Shown here in pieces: positions 11,334 through 64,000 of a DNA stretch of 64,000 nucleotides. This DNA comes from an uncultured Rhodopila sp. GTDB taxonomy: Bacteria; Pseudomonadota; Alphaproteobacteria; Acetobacterales; Acetobacteraceae. The stretch's first letter is position 1. The number at the start of each line of letters is the position of its first letter. A program made the translations under genes and the position numbers. Under the pieces are notes generated by a model, which saw only the letters and a program-made list of their open reading frames with translations, was not told where the DNA came from and searched no databases. The stretch spans positions 62,001 through 126,000 of the forward strand of contig NZ_CAIWTY010000106.1 of assembly GCF_903915725.1 (NCBI RefSeq), written 5' to 3'.

Positions 11334-11423
11334 CCGTCATAGTCAGCGAAGGCGGACCATCCACGCCTCGCGGTGCGCGTTGCGGCAAAGGCGTGGATGG
11401 TCCGCCTTCGCTGACCATGACGG
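11334..11423. repeat. Dispersed bipartite palindrome, copy 1
   Basis: Between emrA and emrB. The left arm starts with CCGTCATAGTCAGCGAAGG and runs through GCGGACCATCCACGCCT. The right arm is almost its exact reverse complement, starting AGGCGTGGATGGTCCGCC and ending CCATGACGG, about 35 bases per arm around a short centre. It shares the ATCCACGCCT/AGGCGTGGAT core and outer GTCATNG/CCATGAC ends with the other copies. Confidence 0.85.
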
Positions 11424-39482: not shown

Positions 39483-39567
39483 ACCGTCATGGCGGGCGAA
39501 GGCCTGCCATCCACGCCTTTGCTTGAACCATTGGAAGGCGTGGATGCCGACCTTCGTCGGCATGACG
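39483..39567. repeat. Dispersed bipartite palindrome, copy 2
   Basis: Between mutA (start) and frdD (end). Left half ACCGTCATGGCGGGCGAAGG, CCTGCCATCCACGCCTTTG; right half AAGGCGTGGATGCCGACCTT, CGTCGGCATGACG. The core ATCCACGCCTT/AAGGCGTGGAT is exact. It lies 18 bases past the frdD stop and may act as its 3' end. The rest of 39255-39584 holds no gene. Confidence 0.8.
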
Positions 39568-43113: not shown

Positions 43114-43204
43114 ACCGTCATGGTCCGCGGAGGCGGACCATCCACGCCTTGCGGTGCTGACCGCCGAAAAGGCGTGGATGGCGGGCCTGCGCCCGCCATG
43201 ACGG
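43114..43204. repeat. Dispersed bipartite palindrome, copy 3
   Basis: Between pckG and frdA. Local hairpin GTCATGGTCCGC-GGAG-GCGGACCAT, then CCACGCCTT, a spacer, AAGGCGTGGAT and a second local hairpin GGCGGGC-CTGC-GCCCGCC ending ATGACGG. A partial extra half (GTGCCCGCCATGACGGTCGG) follows at 43211-43230. It lies about 55 bases past the pckG stop. The rest of 42880-43259 shows no gene and no clear promoter. Confidence 0.85.
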
Positions 43205-50893: not shown

Positions 50894-51397
50894 ATGGACG
50901 CCGATGCCAAGAAGACCGCACTCCGCATGATCCCGTACGGGATTTACGTCCTGACCGCGGATGACGGGAAGGGTAATGTTGGTGCGGCGACGGTGAACTG
51001 GGTGACGCAGGGGTCATTCGCTCCGCCCTTGGTCGTCGTCGGCGTCAAGGCCGATTCGGGCGCGCACACCGTGGTCAAGGGAACCGGTCGCTTTGCGCTG
51101 AACATTCTCGGCAAGGACCACAAAGGTCTGGCCTTCACGTTCTTTAAGCCAGCCAAGCTGGAGGACGGCAAGCTGTCAGGCCAGGATTTCCATGCGGGTG
51201 CCAACGGCGCGCCGATTTTGGACGCGGCGATTGCGGCGGTGGAGTTGACGGTGAAGGAAATCGTCGAGTTGGGTGATCACCACATCGTCGTGGCCGAGGT
51301 GACCGAGGCGTATGTGAAGACCCCGCCGGTTGGCCGCGCCGACGCGGCAATCCTGGAGATGAAGGATCTCGGCGACACGGTTTATTACGGCGGGTAG
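50894..51397 (+). CDS. Flavin reductase-like FMN-binding protein
   Basis: 167 residues of the flavin reductase (DIM6/NTAB-like) split-barrel family. MIPYGIYVLTADDGKGNVGA and WVTQGSFAPPLVVVGVKADS are the FMN-binding segments, with GRFALNILGKDHKGLAFTFF after. AAGGGGA precedes the ATG. Could be a reductase component or a flavin-dependent oxygen-protective enzyme. It lies 69 bases after phoB and is convergent with the bcr operon, separated by a palindrome. Confidence 0.82.
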   Translation: MDADAKKTALRMIPYGIYVLTADDGKGNVGAATVNWVTQGSFAPPLVVVGVKADSGAHTVVKGTGRFALNILGKDHKGLAFTFFKPAKLEDGKLSGQDFHAGANGAPILDAAIAAVELTVKEIVELGDHHIVVAEVTEAYVKTPPVGRADAAILEMKDLGDTVYYGG

Positions 51398-51403
51398 AAC
51401 ATT

Positions 51404-51475
51404 CCCGTCATGGTGCGCGCAGGCGCACCATCCACGCCTTTGCTTCGCTCTCCACCGCGAGGCGTGGATGGTGCA
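51404..51475. repeat. Dispersed bipartite palindrome, copy 6
   Basis: CCGTCATGGTGCGC-GCAG-GCGCACCATCCACGCCT, about 20 bases of centre, then AGGCGTGGATGGTGCATC. Left hairpin complete, right hairpin truncated. It sits in the 87-base gap between the convergent flavin reductase gene and bcrD and may serve as bidirectional 3' end. Confidence 0.85.
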
Positions 51476-51484
51476 TCCCCCCCT

Positions 51485-52327
51485 TTACGCCGCCCTCGCC
51501 TGCTCCGCCATCCGGGCCAGTTTTTCGTGCCGGAACGCTCCCCATAGCGCCGCCCCGAACGCGCCCGCAAAAATCGCATCCGGATGGCTTTCGATCGGCG
51601 CCGTGATTTTCGCCCGCTCGGTTGCCTCCTTCATCGCCTCGACAAGCCCGGCATCGAGCGCCAAGCCGCCCGTCATCTGGATCACCCCATCCACCGTCCC
51701 AATCGTCTTCAGCAGTTTCGCCAGCCGATCGGCCATGGATTCGTGAATGCCCTTGAGGATGTTGGGCGCGGTGATGCCGCGCGACACCATGTTGATGACG
51801 TCGGTTTCCGCCAGCACGGCGCAGATGCCGGAAACCTTTTCGGGGTTGTCGGACTGCCGCGACAAGCTGCCGATTTCATCCTGTGCGATGCCGAGATAGC
51901 GGGCGATATTCTCCAGGAACTGCCCGGAACCCGAGGCGCATTGGCTGGTCATCTTGTAGTTCAGCACCTTGCCGCGTTCGTCCAGCCGGATGGCCCGGCC
52001 GTGCAGCGCACCGACATCGAGAGCGGCACGAGAATCCGGACGCAAATAGATTGCGCCGCGCGCATGGGTCGTCATTGAATAGAAATGCCCAGTGTGGAAG
52101 TCCAGCGACTCGCCTTCACCGGTGGTGGCGCAATACGCAATATCGTTGCGGGCCAGACCCGCCGCCTTGACCACGTCGTTGTAGATCTGAGCAGCCAGCT
52201 TCAGCGGATCGCGCTGGCGGACACGCTCGACGCGTTTGGCCAGGCAGGTTTCCGTGTCGCCGTTTACGTCGAACACCGCGACCTTAACGGCACCGGTTCC
52301 GACATCGATTCCTGCTGTTATCGGCAT
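51485..52327 (-). CDS. bcrD: Benzoyl-CoA reductase subunit D (ATPase/activase)
   Basis: 280 residues of the BadG/HgdC activase family (ASKHA ATPase fold): ITAGIDVGTGAVKVAVFD is the phosphate loop. Cysteines in KMTSQCASGSGQFLENIARY and KVSGICAVLAETDVINMV ligate the [4Fe-4S] cluster shared with BcrA. ATP hydrolysis drives electrons at very low potential into the BcrBC site. Last gene of the cluster, 14 bases after bcrA; length matches Thauera BcrD. Confidence 0.94.
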   Translation of the reverse strand: MPITAGIDVGTGAVKVAVFDVNGDTETCLAKRVERVRQRDPLKLAAQIYNDVVKAAGLARNDIAYCATTGEGESLDFHTGHFYSMTTHARGAIYLRPDSRAALDVGALHGRAIRLDERGKVLNYKMTSQCASGSGQFLENIARYLGIAQDEIGSLSRQSDNPEKVSGICAVLAETDVINMVSRGITAPNILKGIHESMADRLAKLLKTIGTVDGVIQMTGGLALDAGLVEAMKEATERAKITAPIESHPDAIFAGAFGAALWGAFRHEKLARMAEQARAA

Positions 52328-52341
52328 GACATTCTCCTGCT

Positions 52342-53655
52342 TCAGGAAACCACGGCGCGGCGGGCGAATTCGGCGGCGCCGAGCGCACCGGTGTAGATCG
52401 AGTCCGGATTGATGTTGATCGTCACGTCGCCGTAGTTTTCCTTGATCAGCTTGCGCAATTCCCGCACCGCGGCTTCATTCTTGGCGACCCCGCCGGTGAA
52501 GGTGAATTCGTCGGTCACGCCGCCCGAGCGCGAAATGATCGAGATCGCCCGCAAAATGATCGCGCGATGCAACCCGGCCAGGATGTCTTCGCGCTTTTCG
52601 CCCAGCGACAGGCGATCGCGCAGTTCCGCCCCGGCGAACACGGTGCAGGTGGAATTGATGCGCGCCGGCCGGTTGGATTTCATCGCCAGCGGCCCGAGTT
52701 CGTGCAAGCCCATGTTCATCTCATCGGCGATATAGCCGAGATACCGCCCGCAACCCGCCGCGCATCGGTCGTTCATCTGGAAATTCGCCACGATGCCGCT
52801 GCCGTCAACCTGGATGCCCTTGGTGTCCTGACCGCCGATATCCAGCACTGTGCGGGTCTTCGGATACATCATATGCGCGCCCAGGCCGTGGCAGAGGATC
52901 TCCGACCGGATATGCTCCTTGGAGAATGGCAGCGTCACGCGGCCATAGCCGGTGCCGACAAGATAGGTTTCTTCGAGTTCAATCCCAAGGGTGTTCTCGA
53001 TCCTGGCCGGAACGTCGTTCGCCCCGTCGATCAGGTGCGGATCGATCTCCAGCACGCGCTCCATGGCGCGGTGGAACTTGTCGCTCATGTCGCCCGACGG
53101 CGGCCGGTTCTCCACGTCGATGATCGATTTGTCGTAGGCATTCAGCAGGATTTCGTGCGGGACAGCGGATTCTTCGGCAACCGCATCGGCATGGACATGG
53201 AAGCGGGAACCGGCAATGTCGCGGAAAAAGTCCGACTTGCGCACCGCACCCGGGGCGTAAAGATCGGCTGCCTCGGCGCGAAGGCGCCTGAACACCTCGT
53301 TCAGCGCCTCGCCCATCTTGTCGGCGACTTTGGCAAAGCGTTCGGTCTTCAACTGCCCCAGGCAGGTTTCTTCCAGATCGCCGAGCTGTTCCAGGAACTG
53401 CACCAGACGGAAATTCCGTTCCAGCGCACCAAGGAAGGCCTGGACGAGGGCGCCGTTCGCCTCGCCGGATTCCAGCGCGCGGCGAAACAAGGTGAAGCGG
53501 CCGTCGATCCGCGCTTCCTCGCTGGCGACGCGCGCGGCGGTGGCGTAGTTGGACCGGGAGTTGGTGATGCCGCGCCCGATGACGTCGCAGTTTTCGTCCA
53601 GCACCACGGCTTTGGTCGTGGTCGAGCCGAGGTCGATGCCGATGAATGTGCGCAT
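52342..53655 (-). CDS. bcrA: Benzoyl-CoA reductase subunit A (ATPase/activase)
   Basis: 437 residues of the same ASKHA family as BcrD but longer: [20 protein letters not shown] at the start, then an insertion of about 150 residues typical of BcrA/Bad[21 protein letters not shown], cluster cysteines in [20 protein letters not shown] and [13 protein letters not shown], and [10 protein letters not shown]. With BcrD it forms the ATP-driven electron donor of the class I (oxygen-sensitive) reductase. Confidence 0.95.
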
Positions 53656-53665
53656 GGTTTTCCCC

Positions 53666-54976
53666 TCAGGCAGCGCCGCGCAAACCGGCGCGTTTCTGCT
53701 CGATCATCTGGAAGTAGCTTTCGAGGCGGTTCTTGACGTTGGCAGGCGAGAAATAGCGCGGATCGACCAGATCCGTTTCAATAAACGCAGCCGGCTTGCC
53801 GGTGCGCTTTTCGACTTCCCGCATCATCAGCAACTGCCCGGCCGAGAAGCTGTTGCAGCTTTTGATCGAGTTGATCAGCAGACCGTCAGCCTGATACTCG
53901 TCGATGTAGTTCTCCAGCATGTCCACCCGCATCGGCAGGTTCCGGTTGGTGTAGACATTCAGGCAATATTCCGCGAGCGACTCCAGCGGATTGACCGGGT
54001 CGTGCCGGAAGCCGAAATCATAGGTGCCGCCGACTTTGGTGTAGCTGGAGGCGACGACGACCGCACCCTCATCGTAGAACATCTTCCAGAACTGCCGGAA
54101 ATGCGTGTAGTTCGGCGGTCCTTCGACGACCAGGCGATAGCGCTCCTGCCCCATGTCGCCGTCAGGCGTGACCGGCCCCTTGCCTTCGGCGATGCGTTCT
54201 TCCACTTCCTGACGCAGGAAACGATAATAGTCGATCGCGTCATCAGTGCCGCGGAACGCCCCGAAAATCGGACCGATATAATAGATCCCGCCGAAATACG
54301 CATCGATGGGCGACGGCTTCGTCTTGGCACTTTGCAAGACCCAGACAAGATCTTCCTCGGCGATAGCGGATTTCCGCAGATGCGCGCGCAGCAGATCGAT
54401 GTCGAATTTTACTCCGGATACTTTCTCGAGTTTCGGAATGACATCCTGCTTGAGCTGCTTGACCATGTATTTGATCATGTCCTTGGTGATTTTCCCATCC
54501 GCCATATACGGCGTATGGAACATGATCGTCTCGCAGTTATATTGCTGCCGCAGCAGCTCGAACCACTTCATGAAGGTGAAACAGCCTGTGTAGGACAGCA
54601 GCAGCACGTCCGGGTCCGGCAGCTTGCGGCCGTTCGGGCCGATATTGCCCTTGGACATCATGCCGATATCGGACTTGACGTAGGTACAGACATCCTCGGA
54701 ATGGCCGCTTTTCTCGGCTTCCATAACATAGCCGCCGCTTTGCTTGCGCAACCCGCTCTGGATCGCGTTGACCTCCGGCAGGTTGTTGGCGAAGCCGAAG
54801 CACATCAGCAGTTCGTTCAAGTTGCCCGGAACGAAGGTGGCGGCAACCTTTTCGCCATTGGCGGGCGCATCGGACAGCCGCTCGTAATGCCGCGCCATCA
54901 TGTCCTTCTGCTTCGACATCGAAGCGTCCTTGATGATGTCCGCTGGCTTCGACGCGGGGCGGGTGATGATGGTCAT
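53666..54976 (-). CDS. bcrB: Benzoyl-CoA reductase subunit B (catalytic module)
   Basis: 436 residues of the HgdB/BcrB family. The ring-reducing BcrBC part holds two [4Fe-4S] clusters and binds benzoyl-CoA. Visible conserved cysteines in [27 protein letters not shown] and [14 protein letters not shown]. The ATG at 54976 overlaps the bcrC stop (ATGA); four more codons upstream belong to bcrC. Length matches Thauera BcrB. Confidence 0.95.
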
Positions 54977-56157
54977 GCGCCACTCCACAGCTTGATTGAA
55001 TCGGAGAATGTGCCGGCCTGTTCGCGAATCGGCTGCATCTGGCCTGAGTTTTCGGCGAACTTGAAAGCGATCTGCGGCACGCCGTGCGCTTTCAGGATGT
55101 CCTGCAGCATGGGGCGATCGAGCAGGGCCGGATCGCAGAAGCTGGCCATGGCGAAGATGACGCCTTCTGCACGGTGTTTTCGCACGGCCTCGACGAGATA
55201 CAGACCCTTCTTCGCCTGGTCCGGCTCATATTTCGGCGGGGTCGAATGCGAATCATGCAGGAACGCCCGCGACAGAGCTGCCAGCGGATCGCCATCGGTC
55301 GAGACGTCCGACCGCTCCCACCTATTGATCAGCAGGAAGTCGTCATCGACGATGTAGCATCCGGACAGTTCGATCGACTTGATCAGCGTCAGCGGCGGCT
55401 GTTCGCAGAACGCGCCGGAAACTACGACCCGAGAATTGTCCTTGATTGGCCGTTGCTGATCCCGCACGGATGCCAGATAGTCGCGGATAAGCTGGCTATG
55501 CTCTTCCACCGGCAGAACAAATCCGGCGCGCATCACCAGGTAAAGCTCCGACGCGGGAACGTTCCACGGCTCATCGGTGCGCAGCGTGTACGCCTCCCGA
55601 ACCAGGCGGCGATTTTCGTTGAACACTTCAATCGAGGCCCGGATCGCATCGTCAGTGATCGGCTGGCCGGTGATCCCGCCCAGCCACTCGCGGATTTCGT
55701 TCAACTCGCTGCGGTAGAACTCGCCACCGACATCGTCCTCGAAATTCTGCGGCAGATCGACATAGCGCGTGGCGGTGTTCGGAAACATCAGCATCCACAT
55801 ACCGGACAGATTGCGGATGACATCGCAGATCGACGGAAACAACATGCCATCGACGAAATCGATGCGGCCGGAGACACCAAGTTCGATCGTCGAGCGCGGG
55901 ATGCGGCAAATATAGCTCTGGTAATAGGCGTCACCGTGGATCACCTCAAGCTGGTCGCCGCCGCCGAGGATGCCCAGCGGCAGCGCGCCGGCGGCGTGGA
56001 TGATTTCACGCGGAACATAATATGGCATGAAGCCGATGACCTTGCGCCCGGGCTTCGCCGCCTTCCATGCCCGCGCCGTCGAAAAATGCAGATCCGAAAA
56101 CAGATCTTCGCAACGGCGGATGATTCCGGCCGTAGCGGATGCAGGTACGTCCAGCAT
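54973..56157 (-). CDS. bcrC: Benzoyl-CoA reductase subunit C (catalytic module)
   Basis: 394 residues, related to BcrB, with GRKVIGFMPYYVPREIIHAA, SYICRIPRSTIELGVSGRID, FPSICDVIRNLSGMW and VSGAFCEQPPLTLIKSIE, which carry the likely cluster cysteines. GGGAGG lies nine bases before the ATG at 56157 but directly abuts the other in-frame ATG at 56166, so 56157 is preferred. It follows the dch stop by one base. First of bcrCBAD, the same order as Thauera aromatica. Confidence 0.94.
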   Translation of the reverse strand: MLDVPASATAGIIRRCEDLFSDLHFSTARAWKAAKPGRKVIGFMPYYVPREIIHAAGALPLGILGGGDQLEVIHGDAYYQSYICRIPRSTIELGVSGRIDFVDGMLFPSICDVIRNLSGMWMLMFPNTATRYVDLPQNFEDDVGGEFYRSELNEIREWLGGITGQPITDDAIRASIEVFNENRRLVREAYTLRTDEPWNVPASELYLVMRAGFVLPVEEHSQLIRDYLASVRDQQRPIKDNSRVVVSGAFCEQPPLTLIKSIELSGCYIVDDDFLLINRWERSDVSTDGDPLAALSRAFLHDSHSTPPKYEPDQAKKGLYLVEAVRKHRAEGVIFAMASFCDPALLDRPMLQDILKAHGVPQIAFKFAENSGQMQPIREQAGTFSDSIKLWSGA

Positions 56158-56158
56158 G

Positions 56159-56926
56159 TCAGACATCCTCCCAGCGCGGCGTTCGTTTTTCCAGGAAAGC
56201 GTGCAATCCCTCGACCGCGTCGTGCGTCGGCATCAATTCGCGCAAGTACATCGTCTCGATCGCGGCCAGCTTCGCCGAGACACTTTCGATCAGACCGTGC
56301 CGCGCGGCGCGGGTGGCAAAGCGCAGCGAACTCGCGCTCTTCGGCGCCAAATGACGGTCGAAATACGCAAGTGCCGCAGCCTCGGGATCATCAGCGACTT
56401 CGTTCAACAGGCCAACCACCAAAGCGTCCTGCGCGCTGATGCTGCGGCCGGACAGCAGCAGATCCTCCGCCGCCGCCAGGCCGATGCGTTCCGGCAATAC
56501 ACACGACGCCGCCGGGGCGAAGACGCCGATCTGAATTTCCGGCTGGCCGAATTTGGCGTCCGGGGCGGCGAACAGCAGGTGGCCGGCACTGGCGAGTTCC
56601 AGTCCGCCGCCGAGGCACTGGCCGCGCACCGACGTCAGCACGGGAACCGGCGAGGCAAAAATCCGCAGCACCAGGCGGTGAAAACTTGCCAGCATGGCGG
56701 CGCACTGCTTCGGCAGGTGCTCCTCGATCGAGGCGCCGAAACTGAAATGGGGGCCGCTTGCGTCGAACAGGATGCCGCGCAATTCCGCGACGGTTCCGTG
56801 CCGTTCGAGCGCGTCCTCGATCGCGCCGACAAGGGCCGCGTCGAGGACGTTGGCTTTCGGGCGATCAAGCCGCAGGCGCAGCAGGCGCCCGTCGCGCTCG
56901 AACCAGACCTTCAGCGGACTGGTCAT
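56159..56926 (-). CDS. dch: Cyclohexa-1,5-diene-1-carbonyl-CoA hydratase
   Basis: 255-residue crotonase-fold enzyme that adds water to the dienoyl-CoA product of benzoyl-CoA reductase. KVWFERDGRLLRLRLDRPKA at the start, oxyanion loop HFSFGASIEEHLP, and SVRGQCLGGGLELASAGHLL. Length matches Thauera Dch. The ATG overlaps the oah stop (ATGA); an upstream open extension is a shadow of oah. Assignment between generic enoyl-CoA hydratase and Dch rests on the gene order. Confidence 0.9.
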   Translation of the reverse strand: MTSPLKVWFERDGRLLRLRLDRPKANVLDAALVGAIEDALERHGTVAELRGILFDASGPHFSFGASIEEHLPKQCAAMLASFHRLVLRIFASPVPVLTSVRGQCLGGGLELASAGHLLFAAPDAKFGQPEIQIGVFAPAASCVLPERIGLAAAEDLLLSGRSISAQDALVVGLLNEVADDPEAAALAYFDRHLAPKSASSLRFATRAARHGLIESVSAKLAAIETMYLRELMPTHDAVEGLHAFLEKRTPRWEDV

Positions 56927-58017
56927 GCCCGCTTCCCAGGGATCAGCTCTTCGATCATCGCCTCGGACCAGGGTTCGCCCTGGGCGAGACGTTGGCGCAG
57001 CGCGATGAAATCGATTTCGCGATCGTTCTTGGGGCCTTCGTTGAAGGCGCGGAAACCGGTGCGAGCTTCGGCCAGCATGTTCAGCGCCAGCCAGGCGCGG
57101 CTGTCTTCCTTGTTGCGGTTCCAGGTCTCGATCTTCGGCTTGCGCAGTTCCTCGAAGCTTTTCGTCAGGCACTCGGGGAAGGTGGTCATCAGCTTAGTGC
57201 ACAATGCTTCGACCTTGGCATCCAGCGCCGACAGATCGACGACACCGCGGGCCAGGGTCGCCTTGCCCTCGGCCAAAGCTTCACCGGTCAATGGTTCGCC
57301 GTGAATGATGCGGCCGAATTCGTCGAGGTAGCGCTTCGTTTCGACCAGCGGGTTGGCGACGTATGACCCGTCAATCTTCAGCGCCGGCACGATATCCAGA
57401 ACGATGCCGAGGCGGTATGCTTTGTGCGCGGACCAGTGCTCGCACAGGGTGCCGGATTCCATGGCGCGTTCGGCGCCCACCATCAGCGGCAGGAAATCCG
57501 TGGCGCCACCGATGGCGGCGGAGCCGTGCTTGGGGCCGGCCTGACCGAAGCGTGCGAGATCCTGCGAGATGGTGAAATCGCAGGCCATGCCGATTTCCTG
57601 GCCGCCGCCGATACGCATGCCGTTGACGCGGGCGATCACCGGCTTGTCGCAGGCCAGGATCGACGACACCATGTCGTTGAACAGCCGCATATACTGGCGG
57701 TATTCCTGCGGATTGCCGGCGTAATATTCGGCGTATTCCTTGGTATTGCCGCCGGTGCAGAACGCCTTGTCGCCGACGCCGGTAAACACCACCGCAACGA
57801 CATCGCGCGCATGCGACGCGGTGCGGAAGCCGCGGATGACGCCCTTCACCATGTCGGTGGTGTAGGAATTGAACTGACCAGGGTTATCCAGCCAGATCCA
57901 GGCATTGAACAGGCCCGGAACGACCCGGCCATCGGCGCGATGCGCCGGTCGTTTCTCATAAATGACGCCGGGGGAGGGCTCGAAGGCGACGACGTCGTGG
58001 TCGACAAGATGGGACAT
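56923..58017 (-). CDS. oah: 6-oxocyclohex-1-ene-1-carbonyl-CoA hydrolase (ring opening)
   Basis: 364 residues of the crotonase superfamily, much longer than a normal hydratase and typical of Oah. Key segments: FNAWIWLDNPGQFNSYTTDM, VFTGVGDKAFCTGGNTKEYA, VNGMRIGGGQEIGMACDFTI and FGQAGPKHGSAAIGGATDFL. Hydrates and opens the ring, giving 3-hydroxypimelyl-CoA. The ATG at 58017 is 14 bases after the had stop. Presence of Oah defines the Thauera-type rather than the Rhodopseudomonas cyclohexanecarboxylate-type branch. Confidence 0.95.
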   Translation of the reverse strand: MSHLVDHDVVAFEPSPGVIYEKRPAHRADGRVVPGLFNAWIWLDNPGQFNSYTTDMVKGVIRGFRTASHARDVVAVVFTGVGDKAFCTGGNTKEYAEYYAGNPQEYRQYMRLFNDMVSSILACDKPVIARVNGMRIGGGQEIGMACDFTISQDLARFGQAGPKHGSAAIGGATDFLPLMVGAERAMESGTLCEHWSAHKAYRLGIVLDIVPALKIDGSYVANPLVETKRYLDEFGRIIHGEPLTGEALAEGKATLARGVVDLSALDAKVEALCTKLMTTFPECLTKSFEELRKPKIETWNRNKEDSRAWLALNMLAEARTGFRAFNEGPKNDREIDFIALRQRLAQGEPWSEAMIEELIPGKRA

Positions 58018-58031
58018 GGCGAAAGATCCTG

Positions 58032-59105
58032 TCAGTGTTGCGGAACGAGAACGGCGCGGCGGGTCAGCTTGTGCGCGTGCGCCAGTTCGAAAACCTGGTT
58101 GATGCTGTCCAGCGGATGCTGCTCGACGAACGATGCGAGGTCGATCTTGCCATCCAGCACCAGATCGAGCGCGGCGGGATAAAGCTCCGGCGGGCAGCCC
58201 CAATTTCCCAGCGCGCGGGCATCGAATGCCATCAGGTTGGACAGGCGCAGTTCGATGCGGTCCATGGTGAAGCCGACGACGCACAGGGTTGCGCCATAGG
58301 TCAGCAGTCCGAACGCCGTGCTCTGGCCCGCGCCGGTGCCGGAACATTCGAAAATTGTCCATTCGGTCAGCGGCAGTCCGCCCGCCTTGCAGAAGTCGCT
58401 GATCTTCGCTTTCAGGCCCTTCAGGTCATATTCGCGCGCATTCAGCGTCAGCTCAGCGCAAACCCGGCCGATGGCATCCAGCTTGACCGGATCGACATCG
58501 ATCGCCACCACGGTGGCGCCGAATGCTTTGGCGATCTGCGCGGCATAGCCGCCGACACCGCCGATGCCGACGACGATGGCAACCGATCCCGGCGTGACCC
58601 CGGCGCGCAGCACGGCCTGGTACGGGGTCGTTACTGCATCGGCCACGACACTTACATCCGCCAGCGACAGCCGACGCTCCAGGCGGGATTCGTCGACCGG
58701 GCAAAGGCCGCGGGCGGGAACCACGATGTGCGAGGCGAAGCCGCCCTGGATGTCGTTCCCGGGCATCGCCTGCTTGCGGCAGATATTCGGGCGGCCGCAC
58801 CTGCAGGTATCGCATTCGCCGCAGGGCAGCACGGCCGGAATGATGACAGCGCGCCCGAGCCAGGACTCCGCCCCCGCGCCGGTCGCGGCGACCCGTCCGG
58901 ATATTTCGTGGCCGAGCGTCAGCGGCAGCTTATGGTTGGTGCGCACGCCGTCATACAGATAGCCGAGATCGGTGTGGCAGACGCCGCAGCCGGCAACCGC
59001 GACGACGACCTCACCGTCCGCCGGGGTCGCGGTGAAAGCCTCGCGGACCAGCGGTTGGTTGACCCCCGTCATGATCCAGCGATGCGCGTCGGTGCCCGAT
59101 GTCAT
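58032..59105 (-). CDS. had: 6-hydroxycyclohex-1-ene-1-carbonyl-CoA dehydrogenase
   Basis: 357-residue zinc alcohol dehydrogenase-family enzyme oxidising the Dch product to the 6-oxo compound with NAD. Catalytic zinc site in [17 protein letters not shown] and LGHEISGRV; structural zinc cysteines in [17 protein letters not shown]; coenzyme loop [14 protein letters not shown]. First gene of the had-oah-dch-bcrCBAD transcription unit, preceded by a good promoter at 59145-59173. Confidence 0.93.
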
Positions 59106-59144
59106 TGCGTTTCCCCAGTTTCGCCGGCGGCGAATTTTGACGGT

Positions 59145-59173
59145 ATAATAGTATTGGAATACCGGATTGGCAA
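59145..59173 (-). promoter_or_regulatory. Promoter of had-oah-dch-bcrCBAD
   Basis: On the minus strand TTGCCA (59173-59168), 17-base spacer, TATTAT (59150-59145), five of six bases matching consensus in each box, 40 bases before the had ATG. An imperfect palindrome, GGTAT (59142-59146) with ATACC (59159-59163), overlaps the -10 and spacer: a candidate operator. Confidence 0.65.
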
Positions 59174-59207
59174 GCCCTGTCCAGGCCGATCCGATCCCTC
59201 TCCGGCG

Positions 59208-59244
59208 AAGGCGTGGATGGCGGGCCTGCGCCCGCCATGACGGG
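59208..59244. repeat. Dispersed palindrome, copy 7 (right half only)
   Basis: AAGGCGTGGAT, then the local hairpin GGCGGGC-CTGC-GCCCGCC ending ATGACGGG: the same right half as in copy 3 (43114-43204), without a left half. It starts a few bases past the hcrB stop, between hcrB and the had promoter. Confidence 0.8.
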
Positions 59245-59250
59245 GGGGCG

Positions 59251-60225
59251 TCATGCCTCGCCCCACAGGTCGTCCACCAGCTTGCGGGCCATCGCCTGAA
59301 TCACCCGCCGCCGGTAGGCCGGACCAACGATCGTCGTGCGCAGGACGCTCGATTTCTTGCGCAGATGCTGAGCCACAACCGCCGCGGCATCGGCATCCCA
59401 CCTGCGTCCGATCACCTCCGCCGCGTCCACGGCGAGCGGCGCGGAGTTGGTACCGGTGATCGCCATTCGGAAACCGGCGATCACATCCCCGTCCCGCTGC
59501 ATCGCCGCCGCGACGCCGGCCAGCGGGAAGTCGATGGCGTCGCGGATGCGCACTTTTCGATAGGCCGCGCGCCAGCCGGGCAGCGGCGGCAACACTATCA
59601 CCGCCAGCACCTCGCCCGCCGCCAAAGTCAGATGCGAGGCGCCGGTCTCGCGATATAAATCGCAGACCTTCACCCGCCGCGCACCGTCAGGCCCGACCAG
59701 CAGAGCCTCGGCATCCAGCACCATCAGTACCGGTGCGATGTCGCCGTGATAGGTCGCGTAGCAGCGGTCGCTTTTCGCAACGACCTGGCACTTGTCGCCT
59801 TCTTTCTTGAGGCAGAAGCTGTTGGCTTCCCGCCACCATTGGCTCTGGTTGTAGAAGACGCAGCGTGTGTCCTGACACAGATTGCCGCCCAGGGTCGCCG
59901 CCGCCCGGTGAGTCGGTCCCGCCACCGCCAGCGCCGCCTCCACCAACGCCGGATACGCCGCCATCACGTCCGGATGCCGCGCAAGGTCCGCCAGCGTGAC
60001 CCCGGCGCCGATCCACAGCGACTCCCCGTTCCGCCGGATCGACCCCATATCGGCCACGCCGGTCAGGTCGATCAGCGCCGCCGGCTCGCCCAGCCCGCGC
60101 CGCAGATTGACCAGCAGATCGGTTCCCCCGGCCAGGAAGCGCGCACCCTCCGACGCGGCCTTCAGCCGCACCGCTTCGTCCAGCGTCGCCGGGCGGTGCA
60201 CCCGGACATCCGGCAGCAGGTTCAT
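59251..60225 (-). CDS. hcrB: 4-hydroxybenzoyl-CoA reductase, FAD and [4Fe-4S] subunit
   Basis: 324 residues of the molybdenum hydroxylase FAD subunit family: [20 protein letters not shown] and [18 protein letters not shown]. It contains the extra loop found only in 4-hydroxybenzoyl-CoA reductases, with Cys122, Cys138, Cys146 and Cys155 (spacing 16, 8, 9) ligating a [4Fe-4S] cluster; these numbers coincide with those I recall for Thauera HcrB. The ATG at 60225 overlaps the hcrA stop (ATGA). Confidence 0.95.
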
Positions 60226-62540
60226 GACCGCCTCCGATCTTTGGCGTCGAGCCATTCAGCGATGCGATCCGGCGTCAGCGGCAAAGCGTCGGGGCGAATG
60301 CCGATGGCCTCATGCACCGCGTCCATCACGGCGGGCAGGAAGCCGGCGAGCATGCCTTCGCTCGCCTCCTTCGCCCCATACGGCCCGTTCGGGTCGATGC
60401 TTTCGACGATGAAGACCTTGATATCCGGGCTTTCCGCCATCGTCGGCACCCGGTAGTCGAGGATGTTGGCGTGCAGCATGCGGCCCTGGTCGAAGCGGGT
60501 TTCCTCCGACATCGCCTGTCCCATGCCCATCCACACCGCGCCCTGGATCTGGCCTTCCACCGCCAGCGGATTGATGGCTCGGCCGACATCGACTGCCACC
60601 CAGACCTTCTCCGCGGTCACCTTGCCGGTGATCTCGTCCACCGAGCATTCCACGACCTGCGCGGCGTAGCAGAACCCCATGGTGGCGCCGATGGCGCTGC
60701 CGCGGACCTTCTTGTCGCCCATGAATTCCTGCGGGCTGGTGAAGGTGCCCTTCACCGTGATGGGTCCGGTATCGATCAGCGCCGCCTTCACCACGTCGGA
60801 GAACGGCAGGCCCGGGTCCTGGCCGGCGACGCGGAAGAACTCGCCCTCGCACTCGATCGCGTCCAGTGGGGCGTCCAGCTTCTTCGCCGCCGCTTCCACC
60901 AGGATCCGCTTCAGGTCCTGCGCCGCCGCCACCGCCGCATTGCCGACCATGAAGGTGACGCGGGAGGAGTAGGAGCCGTTGTCTTTCGGGGTCAAGGCGC
61001 TGTCGGCGGAGATCACCCTCAGCCGGTGCCAGTCCACGCCCAGCACCTCCGCCACCATCTGCGCCGCCATGGTGTTGGATCCCTGTCCGATATCCGCGGC
61101 GCCGGTCAGCACGGTGATGCCGGCGTCGAAATCCACCCGCAGATTGACGGTGGCGTGCGGCTCGCCGGTCCAGTGCTTCGGCGTGGTGGTGCCGGAGACG
61201 AAATGCGAGCAGGCCAGCCCCAGGCCCCTGCCCTTCGGCAATTTGCCGCGGCGTTCCGCCCAGCCGGACGCGGCCATGACGGCGTCCAGGCATTCCGGCA
61301 GCCCGTAGCTCATGACCCGCTGGGCGTAGGCGGTGATGTGCGGGATCTCGCGCAGCAGGTTGATGCGGCGTACGGCGAAGGCGTCGAGCCCGAGCTCCTC
61401 GGCCATCTCGTTCATCAGCGCCTCGAAAGCGGCGCGCGGATCGACGGTGCCATGGCCGCGCTGGGCGCCGCAGGGCGGGGTGTTGGTATAGACGCGCCAG
61501 CCGTCATGCTTGATGGCGGGCAGGTCGTAGATGCCGTGCAGCAGCGCGCCGGTATAGAGGATCGTAATGATGCCGTAGCTGGCATAGGCCCCGCCGCGCT
61601 GGGTGGCCTTCAGGTGGCAGGCGGTCAGCTTGCCGTCGCGGGTCATTCCCAGCTTGACGGTGATTTCGGTTTCCGGACGGCCGCGATGCGCCAGGAACGT
61701 TTCTTCGCGGGTTTGCAGCATCCGCACGGTGCCCGCTGCCTTGCGGGCGAGCATAGCGGCGATGATCTCAAAGTGCAGACATTCCGTGCGGGCGCCGAAG
61801 CCGCCGCCGACGAACGGCTTGATGACGCGGATATGGCTTTCTTCCATCTCCAGGCACTTCGCCACGTTCAGTTGGACGTAGTACGGCACCTGGGTGGTGG
61901 TGTGCAGCGTCAGGTGGCCGCGTTCGGGGTCGTATTCGGCCAGCGTGGCGTTCGGCTCGATATGGACGTGGTTAACCTCGGCGAACTGGAAGGTCTTTTC
62001 GCGCACCAGATCCGCCGCCGCGAACCCGGCTTCGGCGTCACCGAATTCGTTGTGCACCTCACGCAGGATATTGTTCGGCTTCTCCGCGTGGATCGGCTCC
62101 GCGCCGGGGGCCATGGCCTTTTTGACTTCGAAATAGGCGGGCAGCGGTTCGTATTCGACGCGGATCAGCTTGATCGCGGCGGCCGCAGTTGCTTCGTCGA
62201 TCGCCGCAACGGCGGCCACCGGGTCGCCGCGGTAGCGCACCTTCTCGCGCGCCAGCGGAAATTCATTTTCCGATATCGGCAACACGCCGAACGGGGTTTT
62301 GCAGTCGGCGCCGGTGCAGACGGCGACAACACCTTCCAACGCCTCCGCCGCAGACGTGTCGATAGAGAGTACCCGGGCGTGCGGCAGCGGCGAGCGCAGT
62401 ATCCTGCCGCACAACGCCCCCGGCGCGGCCAGATCTGCCGTGTATTTCGCCTTGCCGGTCACCTTCTCGACGCCGTCGATCAGAGGAGTGCGGACGCCAA
62501 CCGATCCGATACCGCGCCGTTTCAAATCGTGAATGCTCAT
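60222..62540 (-). CDS. hcrA: 4-hydroxybenzoyl-CoA reductase, molybdenum subunit
   Basis: 772-residue xanthine oxidase-family subunit that binds molybdopterin cytosine dinucleotide and removes the para hydroxyl of 4-hydroxybenzoyl-CoA reductively, giving benzoyl-CoA. Segments: [32 protein letters not shown], the molybdenum-pocket regions [20 protein letters not shown] and [15 protein letters not shown], and the C-terminal [10 protein letters not shown] with the conserved glutamate. It overlaps both neighbours by ATGA in the order hcrC-hcrA-hcrB. Confidence 0.94.
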
Positions 62541-62995
62541 CCTGCCGCGGCCTCCACTGATTCGATGATTTTGACGTAGCCGGTGCAGCGGCACAGGTTG
62601 CCGGCGAGCGCCGCCTTAATCTCCTCGCGGCCCGGGTTCGGATTGCGCCGCAGCAGGGCTTCCGCCGCCATGATCATGCCGGGAGTGCAAAAGCCGCACT
62701 GGGTGCCGAGCTTTTCGTGGAACGCCTGCTGCAGCCGGGTGATGCGGCCGCCTTTGGCCAGGCCCTCGACGGTTTCGACGCGGCGGCCCTGCATCTGGAC
62801 CGCGAGCGTGGAGCAGGCGAGCCGCGGCTGGTCGTCCACGAGGACCGTACAGGCGCCGCACTCGCCGCCGTCGCAGCCTTGTTTAGTGCCGGTCAGACCG
62901 AGCTGCTCGCGCAGGTAGTCGAGGAGCAGCATGGTGTCGGGAACGAGGTCTTCCCGGCGGCGGCCGTTCACGGTCAGGGTGAGGATGGATTTCAT
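62537..62995 (-). CDS. hcrC: 4-hydroxybenzoyl-CoA reductase, [2Fe-2S] subunit
   Basis: 152 residues with two [2Fe-2S] clusters: the plant ferredoxin-type set in [18 protein letters not shown] and [10 protein letters not shown], and the second set in [13 protein letters not shown] and [13 protein letters not shown]. The ATG at 62995 is chosen; the open frame upstream runs through a palindromic repeat and is not coding. First gene of hcrCAB. Confidence 0.95.
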
Positions 62996-63029
62996 GGAGT
63001 GGTTCCCGCTGCACGGTCTCGTCCTTTGT

Positions 63030-63118
63030 GTCGTGGCCGGGCTTGGCCCGGCCATCCACGACTTTGCCGCCCCAAACACCGCAAGTCGTGGGTGGCCGGG
63101 CCAAGCCCGGCCATGACA
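63030..63118. repeat. Dispersed bipartite palindrome, copy 8
   Basis: GTCGTGGCCGGG-CTTG-GCCCGGCCAT, CCACGACTT, 18-base centre, AAGTCGTGGGTGGCCGGGC, CAAG, CCCGGCCATGACAC. Two local hairpins also pair with each other. The inner core is CCACGACTT rather than CCACGCCTT, changed compensatorily on both sides, which argues for conserved base pairing. Lies between the aryl-CoA ligase and hcrC. Confidence 0.85.
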
Positions 63119-63194
63119 CTGAAGCAACGACCGTGCCACTGCCCCCTTAGGGCAGCACCGACCACCGGAGCGGGAACGCCATGCTTCATCCTCC

Positions 63195-64000
63195 TCATCC
63201 CGGTGTCACGGCCATGTGCCGCTGGCGCAGCACGAATCGCTGGATCTTCCCCGTCGCGGTCTTCGGCAGATCCGGCACCACCTGCACCCAGCGCGGGAAC
63301 TTGTATGGCGCCAGCCGCGTCCGGCAGTGCCGCACCAGATCGGCCTCCAACCCCTCCGGCACTTCCTGAACCGGCACTTTCGGCACGATCCAGGCTTCCG
63401 GCTTGACCAGCCCGTCGGCATCCTCGCGGCCGATGACCGCGGCTTCCAGGACGTCGGGGTGCTCGATCAGCGCCGCCTCGATCTCGGCCGGCGAGCACCA
63501 GATGCCGCCCACCTTCAGCATGTCGCCGCTGCGCCCGCTATAGGCGAACGTCCCGTCCGGGTTGGCGCGATAGGTGTCGCCGGTGTCGAACCAGCCATCC
63601 TCCAGCGTCGGTCTTGGATTGTGCCAGTAATATTTGGCGATGGAATCGCCGCTCAGTAGCAGCCGTCCGGGCGTGCCAACCGGCACGTCATGGCCGTCGT
63701 CATCGACCACCCTCACGGCGTAGCCGGCCACCACGCGCCCGCTGGCACCCGGCGTCACGTCGCCCGGGCGGTTGGCGATGTACATGTGCCCCGCCTCGGT
63801 CGACCCGATGGCATCGAGGATGTCGATCCCCGTCAGCCGCTTCCAACCCTCATACAGATGCGCCGGCAGCGCCTCCCCGGCGGAAACGCAATACCGCACC
63901 GAGGACAAATCGGCCTGATGATGCTGCAGTTCGGCGATCTGACGGGCGTACAGTGTCGGAACGCCGAAGAACAGAGTCGGGCGGAAGCGCTCGATCGCAG
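63195..64000 (-). CDS. Aryl-CoA ligase (benzoate or 4-hydroxybenzoate), partial
   Basis: The frame stays open to the right edge, giving about 268 C-terminal residues of an acyl-adenylate-forming enzyme. Visible: LFFGVPTLYARQIAELQ, VRYCVSAGEALPAHLYEGWK, GIDILDAIGSTEAGHMYIA, GWFDTGDTYRANPDGTFAYS, RSGDMLKVGGIWCSPAEIE and the C-terminal lysine in PKTATGKIQRFVLR. This is the benzoate-CoA ligase group (BclA/BadA/HbaA). Upstream of hcrCAB it would supply the CoA substrate. Which acid it prefers cannot be read from this part. Confidence 0.9.
   Translation of the reverse strand, partial: AIERFRPTLFFGVPTLYARQIAELQHHQADLSSVRYCVSAGEALPAHLYEGWKRLTGIDILDAIGSTEAGHMYIANRPGDVTPGASGRVVAGYAVRVVDDDGHDVPVGTPGRLLLSGDSIAKYYWHNPRPTLEDGWFDTGDTYRANPDGTFAYSGRSGDMLKVGGIWCSPAEIEAALIEHPDVLEAAVIGREDADGLVKPEAWIVPKVPVQEVPEGLEADLVRHCRTRLAPYKFPRWVQVVPDLPKTATGKIQRFVLRQRHMAVTPG

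What the first reader, a model, noticed from the sequence alone, without database searches (positions are those of the whole stretch)
51485..64000. Contiguous anaerobic benzoate / 4-hydroxybenzoate degradation cluster of Thauera type in an alphaproteobacterium
Aryl-CoA ligase, hcrCAB, had-oah-dch and bcrCBAD lie head to tail on one strand with ATGA couplings, covering the route from 4-hydroxybenzoate to 3-hydroxypimelyl-CoA. The had/oah/dch set indicates the Thauera-Magnetospirillum branch, not the Rhodopseudomonas badDEFG/badK branch usual for phototrophic alphaproteobacteria. The cluster borders ordinary housekeeping genes (pst, frd). The ferredoxin and its reductase that feed BcrAD are not in the visible part.
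Basis: partly seen in the sequence, partly recalled or inferred. Interest (0 to 1): 0.75.

Follow-up and report, generated by a model that had tools for sequence, protein, structure and literature searches.

The report
Mosaic anaerobic benzoate-degradation cluster in Rhodopila
A bacterium with purple-photosynthesis genes carries a gene set for breaking the benzene ring without oxygen, pieced together from two bacterial lineages and lacking the usual companion genes that feed electrons to the ring-breaking enzyme.

Summary
Eleven genes on one strand (aryl-CoA ligase, hcrCAB, had, oah, dch, bcrCBAD) all exceed their NCBIfam cut-offs and encode 4-hydroxybenzoate/benzoate to 3-hydroxypimelyl-CoA. 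The host is a Rhodopila-like Acetobacteraceae with photosynthesis and nif genes.

The reductase joins a clade with Rhodopseudomonas, far from Azoarcus. The cluster is a mosaic: had-oah-dch-bcrCBAD is Hyphomicrobiales-type, while the GNAT-Rrf2 pair (BadL/BadM-like, right of the window) is Acetobacteraceae-type; AU tests reject the opposite placements.

Unusual: the bcr ferredoxin (after bcrD in 55 of 60 loci) and KorA (49 of 56) are absent from the cluster, with no close homologue in the genome. Yet the genes stay under purifying selection (dN/dS 0.02-0.13). Candidate replacements: nif ferredoxin with FixABCX/NifJ, or a POR plus fused-Nfn pair seen in 4 of 4 bcr genomes lacking bcr-type KorA and 0 of 3 having it. 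The electron route is inferred, not shown.

The parts
51485..52327 (-). bcrD, benzoyl-CoA reductase activase subunit
   Evidence: TIGR02261 508.6 bits, cut-off 312.85
52342..53655 (-). bcrA, benzoyl-CoA reductase activase subunit
   Evidence: TIGR02259 823.7 bits, cut-off 578
53666..54976 (-). bcrB, ring-reducing subunit
   Evidence: TIGR02260 865.1 bits, cut-off 486.55; start read from the ATGA junction
54973..56166 (-). bcrC, ring-reducing subunit (a second possible start is at 56157)
   Evidence: TIGR02263 736.2 bits, cut-off 421.15
56159..56926 (-). dch, cyclohexa-1,5-dienecarbonyl-CoA hydratase
   Evidence: TIGR03189 396.8 bits, cut-off 292.5; start from the ATGA junction
56923..58017 (-). 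oah, 6-oxocyclohex-1-ene-1-carbonyl-CoA hydratase
   Evidence: TIGR03200 640.5 bits, cut-off 464.45; start
58032..59105 (-). had, 6-hydroxycyclohex-1-ene-1-carbonyl-CoA dehydrogenase
   Evidence: TIGR03201 571.7 bits, cut-off 338.65
59251..60225 (-). hcrB, 4-hydroxybenzoyl-CoA reductase FAD subunit with the cysteine-rich loop
   Evidence: TIGR03195 473.9 bits, cut-off 404.55; Cys 117, 122, 138, 146, 155 align with Cys of 1rm6_B
60222..62540 (-). hcrA, 4-hydroxybenzoyl-CoA reductase Mo subunit
   Evidence: TIGR03194 1283.9 bits, cut-off 994.55
62537..62995 (-). hcrC, 4-hydroxybenzoyl-CoA reductase small Fe-S subunit
   Evidence: TIGR03193 282 bits, cut-off 257.8
63195..64000 (-). 3' part of the aryl-CoA (benzoate/4-hydroxybenzoate) ligase; the ORF continues 826 nt past the window
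   Evidence: full ORF L157:13196-14827: TIGR02262 584 bits, cut-off 375.25; best PDB match benzoate-CoA ligase 2v7b
51405..51471 (.). REP-like palindromic repeat in the bcrD-flavin reductase gap, where relatives carry the bcr ferredoxin gene
   Evidence: fdx within 1.5 kb after bcrD in 55 of 60 loci; this exact repeat is not at this place in G006
59208..59248 (.). REP-like repeat in the hcrB-had gap, where relative G017 carries korBA and other genes
   Evidence: not at this place in G006
63030..63117 (.). palindromic repeat in the ligase-hcrC gap, where G017 carries a transporter-like gene; also present in G006

Best explanation
The cluster is a working anaerobic 4-hydroxybenzoate/benzoate module of a Rhodopila-like bacterium with photosynthesis and nif genes. 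The ligase makes the CoA ester, HcrCAB removes the para-hydroxyl, BcrCBAD reduces the ring with ATP and low-potential electrons, and Dch, Had and Oah carry the dienoyl-CoA to 3-hydroxypimelyl-CoA (steps from established biochemistry of these families, not tested here). It is a mosaic. had-oah-dch-bcrCBAD came from a Hyphomicrobiales-type (Rhodopseudomonas/Rhodoblastus-side) donor. The regulators (a GNAT and an Rrf2 protein, BadL/BadM-like), and by similarity the ligase, are of the family's own type. The transferred block probably came with korAB and a bcr ferredoxin, still present in sister lineage G017; the window's lineage lost both. BCR must then take electrons from another low-potential source. 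Inferred, not shown: the nif-linked ferredoxin, reduced by FixABCX, NifJ, or a POR-Nfn pair encoded on another contig.
For: Family models: all 11 genes over cut-off. Mosaic: BCR joins the Rhodopseudomonas clade, and a grouping with the Acetobacteraceae-side rows is rejected (AU p 6.6e-7); Had/Oah/Dch likewise (p 7.2e-5); GNAT+Rrf2 the other way round (p 0.003). Ligase 74% identical to that of same-family G044, 53% to Rhodoblastus, 43% to R. pseudopalustris. Modularity: in G024, GNAT-Rrf2-ligase-hcrCAB sit on contig C49 and had..bcrD on C211. Loss: fdx after bcrD in 55 of 60 loci, KorA in 49 of 56; G017 keeps both; no bcr-type KorA or Fdx match in the genomes of G000, G006, G024. Function kept: dN/dS 0.020-0.130 for the 11 genes against G006 and 0.040-0.131 for the seven had..bcrD genes against G024. 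Host: pufL, pufM, bchY, nifD, nifK over cut-off; fixABCX-like genes beside nif (below cut-offs). NifJ 1689 bits. POR-like + fused Nfn on C90.
Against: No biochemistry, expression or growth data; all genus genomes here are draft assemblies. The electron route rests on absence plus co-occurrence: the four genomes with the POR-Nfn pair also all have the nif-type ferredoxin and pufM, so the pair may serve nitrogenase. hcrA ancestry is unresolved (weak tree). Donor direction is read from the 80 nearest loci only, one of the clade's rows is a MAG labelled Betaproteobacteria (L042), and G017 of the sister lineage shows no pufM match. Only KorA, the bcr ferredoxin, RnfC, NifJ and Nfn-large-subunit models were searched; other ferredoxins or flavodoxins were not. 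Two of the three repeats found in the gaps are not at those places in G006, so they do not date the losses.
Confidence: 0.8

Rival explanations
1. Thauera/Magnetospirillum-type cluster acquired from a betaproteobacterial denitrifier.
For: had-oah-dch is present and the order resembles that of Azoarcus taiwanensis L103.
Against: The Azoarcus proteins fall on the opposite side of both trees; the same order is common in the mostly alphaproteobacterial loci; the nearest rows outside the genus are L039 and L040, the latter titled Hyphomicrobiales.
Confidence: 0.05
2. The cluster descended vertically within Acetobacteraceae.
For: The GNAT-Rrf2 pair groups with family members; the ligase is 74% identical to that of G044 of the same family.
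Against: AU tests reject it for BCR (p 6.6e-7) and for Had/Oah/Dch (p 7.2e-5); same-genus G029 carries the other, family-type BCR.
Confidence: 0.07
3. The cluster is a decaying remnant: having lost korAB and ferredoxin it no longer works.
For: Three gene blocks present in G017 are missing.
Against: All ORFs intact; dN/dS 0.020-0.131 in pairs of genomes that both lack the bcr ferredoxin and KorA; a BadM-like regulator (60% identity or more) is in 5 of 5 bcr genomes of the genus and in 1 of 28 without bcr.
Confidence: 0.08
4. Electrons for BCR come from the 2-oxoacid:ferredoxin oxidoreductase next to iorA on contig C109, a functional replacement of the lost KorAB.
For: KorA-like protein over the PRK08659 cut-off (572/411), IorA over cut-off and a KorB-like protein below cut-off beside it; matches also in G006 and G029.
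Against: G024, which has bcr without bcr-type KorA, gave no such match; identity to bcr KorA only 37%.
Confidence: 0.2

Closest known systems
Rhodopseudomonas palustris bad/hba system (BadDEFG, BadL/BadM, BadB; PMC6191541, PMC9973337)
   Same: Closest named reductase relative is R. pseudopalustris (L049); GNAT + Rrf2 pair of the same kind (in R. palustris BadL acetylates aminobenzoates and the product releases BadM from the promoter); host with photosynthesis genes.
   Different: The window uses had-oah-dch where L049 shows only 31-36% matches; no BadB-type ferredoxin; regulators only 46-50% identical to those of L049; neither bcr-type KorA nor a clear AadN orthologue found.
Thauera/Azoarcus bcr cluster
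   Same: Same enzymes and near-identical order (seen here in Azoarcus taiwanensis L103; Thauera order recalled).
   Different: fdx and korAB absent; sequences distant from L103; a GNAT-Rrf2 pair stands beside it.
Clusters L039 (Proteobacteria MAG) and L040 (Hyphomicrobiales MAG)
   Same: Nearest rows outside the genus for both BCR and Had/Oah/Dch; same gene order.
   Different: They keep korAB and ferredoxin; their GNAT-Rrf2 pair is of another clade.
Genus relative G017 (JAJZEV010000268)
   Same: Same mosaic of regulators, ligase, hcr and had..bcrD.
   Different: Still has a transporter-like gene, korBA, other genes and ferredoxin in the cluster.

Membership tests
Class I benzoyl-CoA reductase, bcr/bad subtype (BcrABCD) | All four subunits over the bcr-type equivalog cut-offs, not the bzd or dehydratase models | tested here: met
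   A 824, B 865, C 736, D 509 bits; bzd and dehydratase models below their cut-offs
Class I benzoyl-CoA reductase, bcr/bad subtype (BcrABCD) | Dedicated 2[4Fe-4S] ferredoxin gene next to bcrD (a usual companion, not part of the enzyme) | tested here: not met
   absent after bcrD and no bcr-type match in the genome; best hit is the nifB-linked ferredoxin, E 1.6e-12
Class I benzoyl-CoA reductase, bcr/bad subtype (BcrABCD) | ATP-dependent ring reduction | not testable with these tools
   needs enzyme assay
Thauera-type lower benzoyl-CoA route | had, oah and dch equivalogs | tested here: met
   all over cut-off
Thauera-type lower benzoyl-CoA route | Phylogenetic placement with Thauera/Azoarcus | tested here: not met
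   the one Azoarcus row is distant; no Thauera row was available
4-Hydroxybenzoyl-CoA reductase | Three subunits over cut-off and the extra cysteines of HcrB | tested here: met
BadL/BadM regulatory pair | GNAT gene adjacent to an Rrf2 gene beside a bcr/bad cluster | tested here: met
   L004:1332-1865 and 1878-2336
BadL/BadM regulatory pair | Aminobenzoate acetylation and acetamidobenzoate-responsive repression | not testable with these tools
   shown for R. palustris (PMC6191541, abstract and passages)
AadN (fused Nfn feeding BCR) | Fused Nfn within the aromatic gene cluster | tested here: not met
   the fused Nfn found lies on contig C90 next to a giant POR-like gene, not in the cluster
AadN (fused Nfn feeding BCR) | Orthology with R. 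palustris AadN | not tested
   no AadN sequence was at hand

The most novel reading that the evidence does not exclude
In Rhodopila, benzoyl-CoA reductase has been cut loose from its private electron line twice (in the G000/G006/G024 lineage and, with a different bcr, in G029) and now shares a low-potential pool with nitrogenase. The nif ferredoxin, charged by FixABCX or by the giant POR-fused Nfn pair (G000:C90), would serve both enzymes. This is the reverse of the insulation between the two pathways reported for R. palustris (PMC9973337).
Probability: 0.3. Interest if true: 0.65.

Novelty: new variant of a known kind. Interest (0 to 1): 0.5.

Why it matters
How the ferredoxin of benzoyl-CoA reductase is reduced in phototrophs is unsettled: R. 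palustris strains that degrade aromatics carry either KorAB or the Nfn-like AadN, and the BCR line is insulated from nitrogenase (PMC9973337). A lineage with an intact, selected BCR but neither bcr-type KorA nor a BadB-type ferredoxin is a natural test of that rule. Rows L039 and L040 also show had-oah-dch inside the Rhodopseudomonas-side BCR clade, which suggests that the R. palustris route replaced it. In print: no held paper has both 'benzoyl-CoA reductase' and 'Rhodopila'; two hold 'Acetobacteraceae' with 'benzoyl-CoA', 'anaerobic' and 'aromatic', and by their titles neither is about this (listing only).

Tried and rejected
Betaproteobacterial origin and vertical descent: against trees and AU tests. 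Rnf as electron source: no rnfC over cut-off in 7 of 7 genomes; the weak hits may be NuoF (not checked). AadN-like protein: nothing over the TIGR01316 cut-off in 8 of 8 genomes; best in G000 is the C90 fused Nfn at 400 bits. FNR-type operator of the catabolic operon: the only perfect TTGATN4ATCAA in L157 lies upstream of the O-methyltransferase gene, not the ligase. Plasmid search for the fused Nfn at E 1e-100: no match. The second HGD-D locus on C71 as an electron source: no support, left as a side observation.

Limits of the counts. The 80 loci are the best of 348 and include three genus relatives (L036, L037, L038), of which L036 and L037 are two of the five loci without ferredoxin. For trees, hits with under 75% coverage or 45% identity were dropped; careful trees used 26 of 72 (BCR) and 25 of 55 (Had/Oah/Dch) rows; the regulator tree used 33. 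The 'Acetobacteraceae side' in the AU tests held G029, G044 and Acidicaldus L076 (BCR) or G044 and L092 (Had/Oah/Dch) plus MAG rows without a named family, picked after a first FastTree tree, so those p values are somewhat optimistic. Fused Nfn absence in G044 and G058 rests alone, where no match resembles the C90 one; other fused Nfn proteins there are not excluded.
Full report
Observation. The window's right end carries, on the minus strand, ligase, hcrCAB, had, oah, dch and bcrCBAD. Each of the 11 genes exceeds its curated NCBIfam cut-off. HcrB keeps five cysteines of the loop region of Thauera HcrB 1rm6_B (that they include the ligands of the extra [4Fe-4S] cluster is recalled). ATGA overlaps occur at 4 of 10 junctions; two junctions are true gaps of 145 and 199 nt. 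The ligase ORF ends 826 nt beyond the window; beyond it, divergent, lie a GNAT gene and an Rrf2 gene, then an O-methyltransferase and an SDR gene.

Host. The window is G000:C106:62001-126000, in a 6.7 Mb genome of 111 contigs. It has pufL, pufM, bchY, nifD and nifK over cut-off and a FixABCX-like set beside nif (hits below cut-off, FixX named from position and length). Of 33 genus genomes, 5 have bcrC over cut-off and 7 have pufM over cut-off (an eighth below it), 4 in both (Fisher p 0.004; three of the four are close sisters, so not independent).

What the relatives show. A scan with an alignment of seven BcrC proteins gave 348 relatives, 80 kept, mostly alphaproteobacterial by title. had-oah-dch stands directly upstream of bcrC in 51 of 65 loci with room to see it. 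Of the 14 exceptions, 5 have dch and oah without a had match; others, such as Rhodopseudomonas L049 and Bradyrhizobium L041, have none of the three. A bcr-type ferredoxin follows bcrD within 1.5 kb in 55 of 60; the five exceptions are two Rhodopila loci, L049 (ferredoxin further on), L102 and L110. KorA at 50% identity or more is present in 49 of 56. An adjacent GNAT-Rrf2 pair is seen in 28 of 80 loci; many loci are too short to show it (18 of the 36 longest have it).

Mosaic. With 26 rows and 1551 columns, BcrCBAD of G000, G006, G024 and G017 forms a 7-row clade (100/100) with Rhodopseudomonas L049, L039 and L040. The Acetobacteraceae-side rows, including same-genus G029, are in another part of the tree, and holding the two together costs 419 log-likelihood units (AU p 6.6e-7). 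Had/Oah/Dch give the same picture (183 units, p 7.2e-5). GNAT+Rrf2 instead group with G044, G029, L061 and L106, and holding them with the Rhodopseudomonas side is rejected (57 units, p 0.003). In G024 the two modules lie apart: GNAT, Rrf2, ligase and hcrCAB on C49; had..bcrD on C211 beside the flavin reductase gene. G004 carries the first module and no bcrC match (89% complete). The ligase is 74% identical to that of G044. hcrA is unresolved.

Missing electron supply. G017, the sister lineage, has a transporter-like gene (named by eye) between ligase and hcrC, korBA and other genes between hcrB and had, and ferredoxin after bcrD. In the window these three places are short gaps that hold REP-like palindromes; G006 has the same gaps but only the ligase-hcrC repeat. 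Genome-wide, the best KorA match in G000 is 37% identical, in an ior-kor cluster on C109, and the best ferredoxin match is the nifB-linked one on C13. G029, whose bcr is of the other type, also lacks both, although its clade mates G044, L076, L078 and L099 have them; its fetched region shows dch but no oah or had. Yet the genes are under purifying selection: dN/dS 0.020-0.130 for the 11 genes against G006 and 0.040-0.131 for had..bcrD against G024. A BadM-like Rrf2 protein of 60% identity or more is present in 5 of 5 bcr genomes of the genus and in 1 of 28 without bcr (p 2.5e-5).

Candidate donors. NifJ is over cut-off in 6 of 6 genomes tested, including the bcr-negative G009. A 1656-aa POR-like protein (below the NifJ cut-off) followed by a 946-aa protein matching both subunits of P. 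furiosus NfnI is present in G000, G006, G024 and G029. Nothing like it shows in G017 and G009, and no Nfn match of this kind in G044 and G058 (only). So it is in 4 of 4 bcr genomes without bcr-type KorA and 0 of 3 with it. This mirrors the either-AadN-or-KorAB pattern of R. palustris strains (PMC9973337; I read the abstract, sections 7 and 9, and passages). But the same four genomes are the only ones of nine where the C13-type nif ferredoxin was found, so the pair may serve nitrogenase. In R. palustris the BCR and nitrogenase lines are insulated (same paper); Rhodopila, lacking a private ferredoxin, may not be.

Regulation. In R. palustris, BadL acetylates aminobenzoates and the products release BadM from the badDEFGAB promoter (PMC6191541, abstract and passages). 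That paper reports similar pairs in other proteobacteria, including Magnetospirillum magneticum, so the pair here is a known kind. PMC10803450 (passages) reports BadM only in alphaproteobacterial contexts. PMC10715153 (passages) lists Rhodopila among the phototrophic Acetobacteraceae and does not contain the word benzoate.

Verdict. A real, probably functional, known pathway; unusual in its mosaic origin and in the loss of its dedicated electron supply.

Noticed in passing
L020:5698-13388 (G000:C71), also L034 and L035: Tandem locus of three activase domains and four HGD-D-type domains (two of them weak; one activase-HGD-D fusion of about 670 aa), nearest to double-cubane reductases but below that model's cut-off. 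Among 98 relatives searched with the bcrC model it shows only in G000, G006 and G024; a strong match in 1 of 385 class and 1 of 398 phylum genomes, both G000 itself, plus one weak match. In G000 and G006 it follows a Mo-bisPGD/Fe-S/membrane-protein operon; short fragments on C77. Possibly a second ATP-dependent reductase.
   Followed up: partly
L146:146-9689 (G000:C88): Phenylglyoxylate oxidoreductase genes PadG, PadH, PadI over cut-off, with PadI and a PaaK-type ligase in one 929-aa ORF, beside a Mo-bisPGD oxidoreductase: likely an anaerobic phenylacetate-to-benzoyl-CoA branch.
   Followed up: partly
L184:7546-15353 (G000:C90): Giant 1656-aa POR-like protein overlapping a 946-aa fused Nfn (PRK12779, 1751 bits over a cut-off of 1519); about 82% identical in G029.
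   Followed up: partly
window 11357-11400, 39507-39547, 43138-43181, 51428-51471, 59209-59220, 63052-63095: Dispersed REP-like palindrome; 10 matches to its core against 0.6 expected.
   Followed up: partly
L157:16088-16101: Perfect FNR-type box TTGATCTAGATCAA upstream of the O-methyltransferase-SDR pair beside the regulators; perfect boxes also lie upstream of had and between ligase and hcr in G044.
   Followed up: no
L031 (G029): Same-genus genome with a family-type dch-bcrCBAD next to GNAT-Rrf2 but no had, oah, ferredoxin or korAB in the fetched region.
   Followed up: partly
window 50894-51397: Flavin reductase-like gene (matches below cut-off) between phoB and the cluster; also adjacent to the cluster in G006 and G024, in spite of the inverted order in G024.
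   Followed up: no
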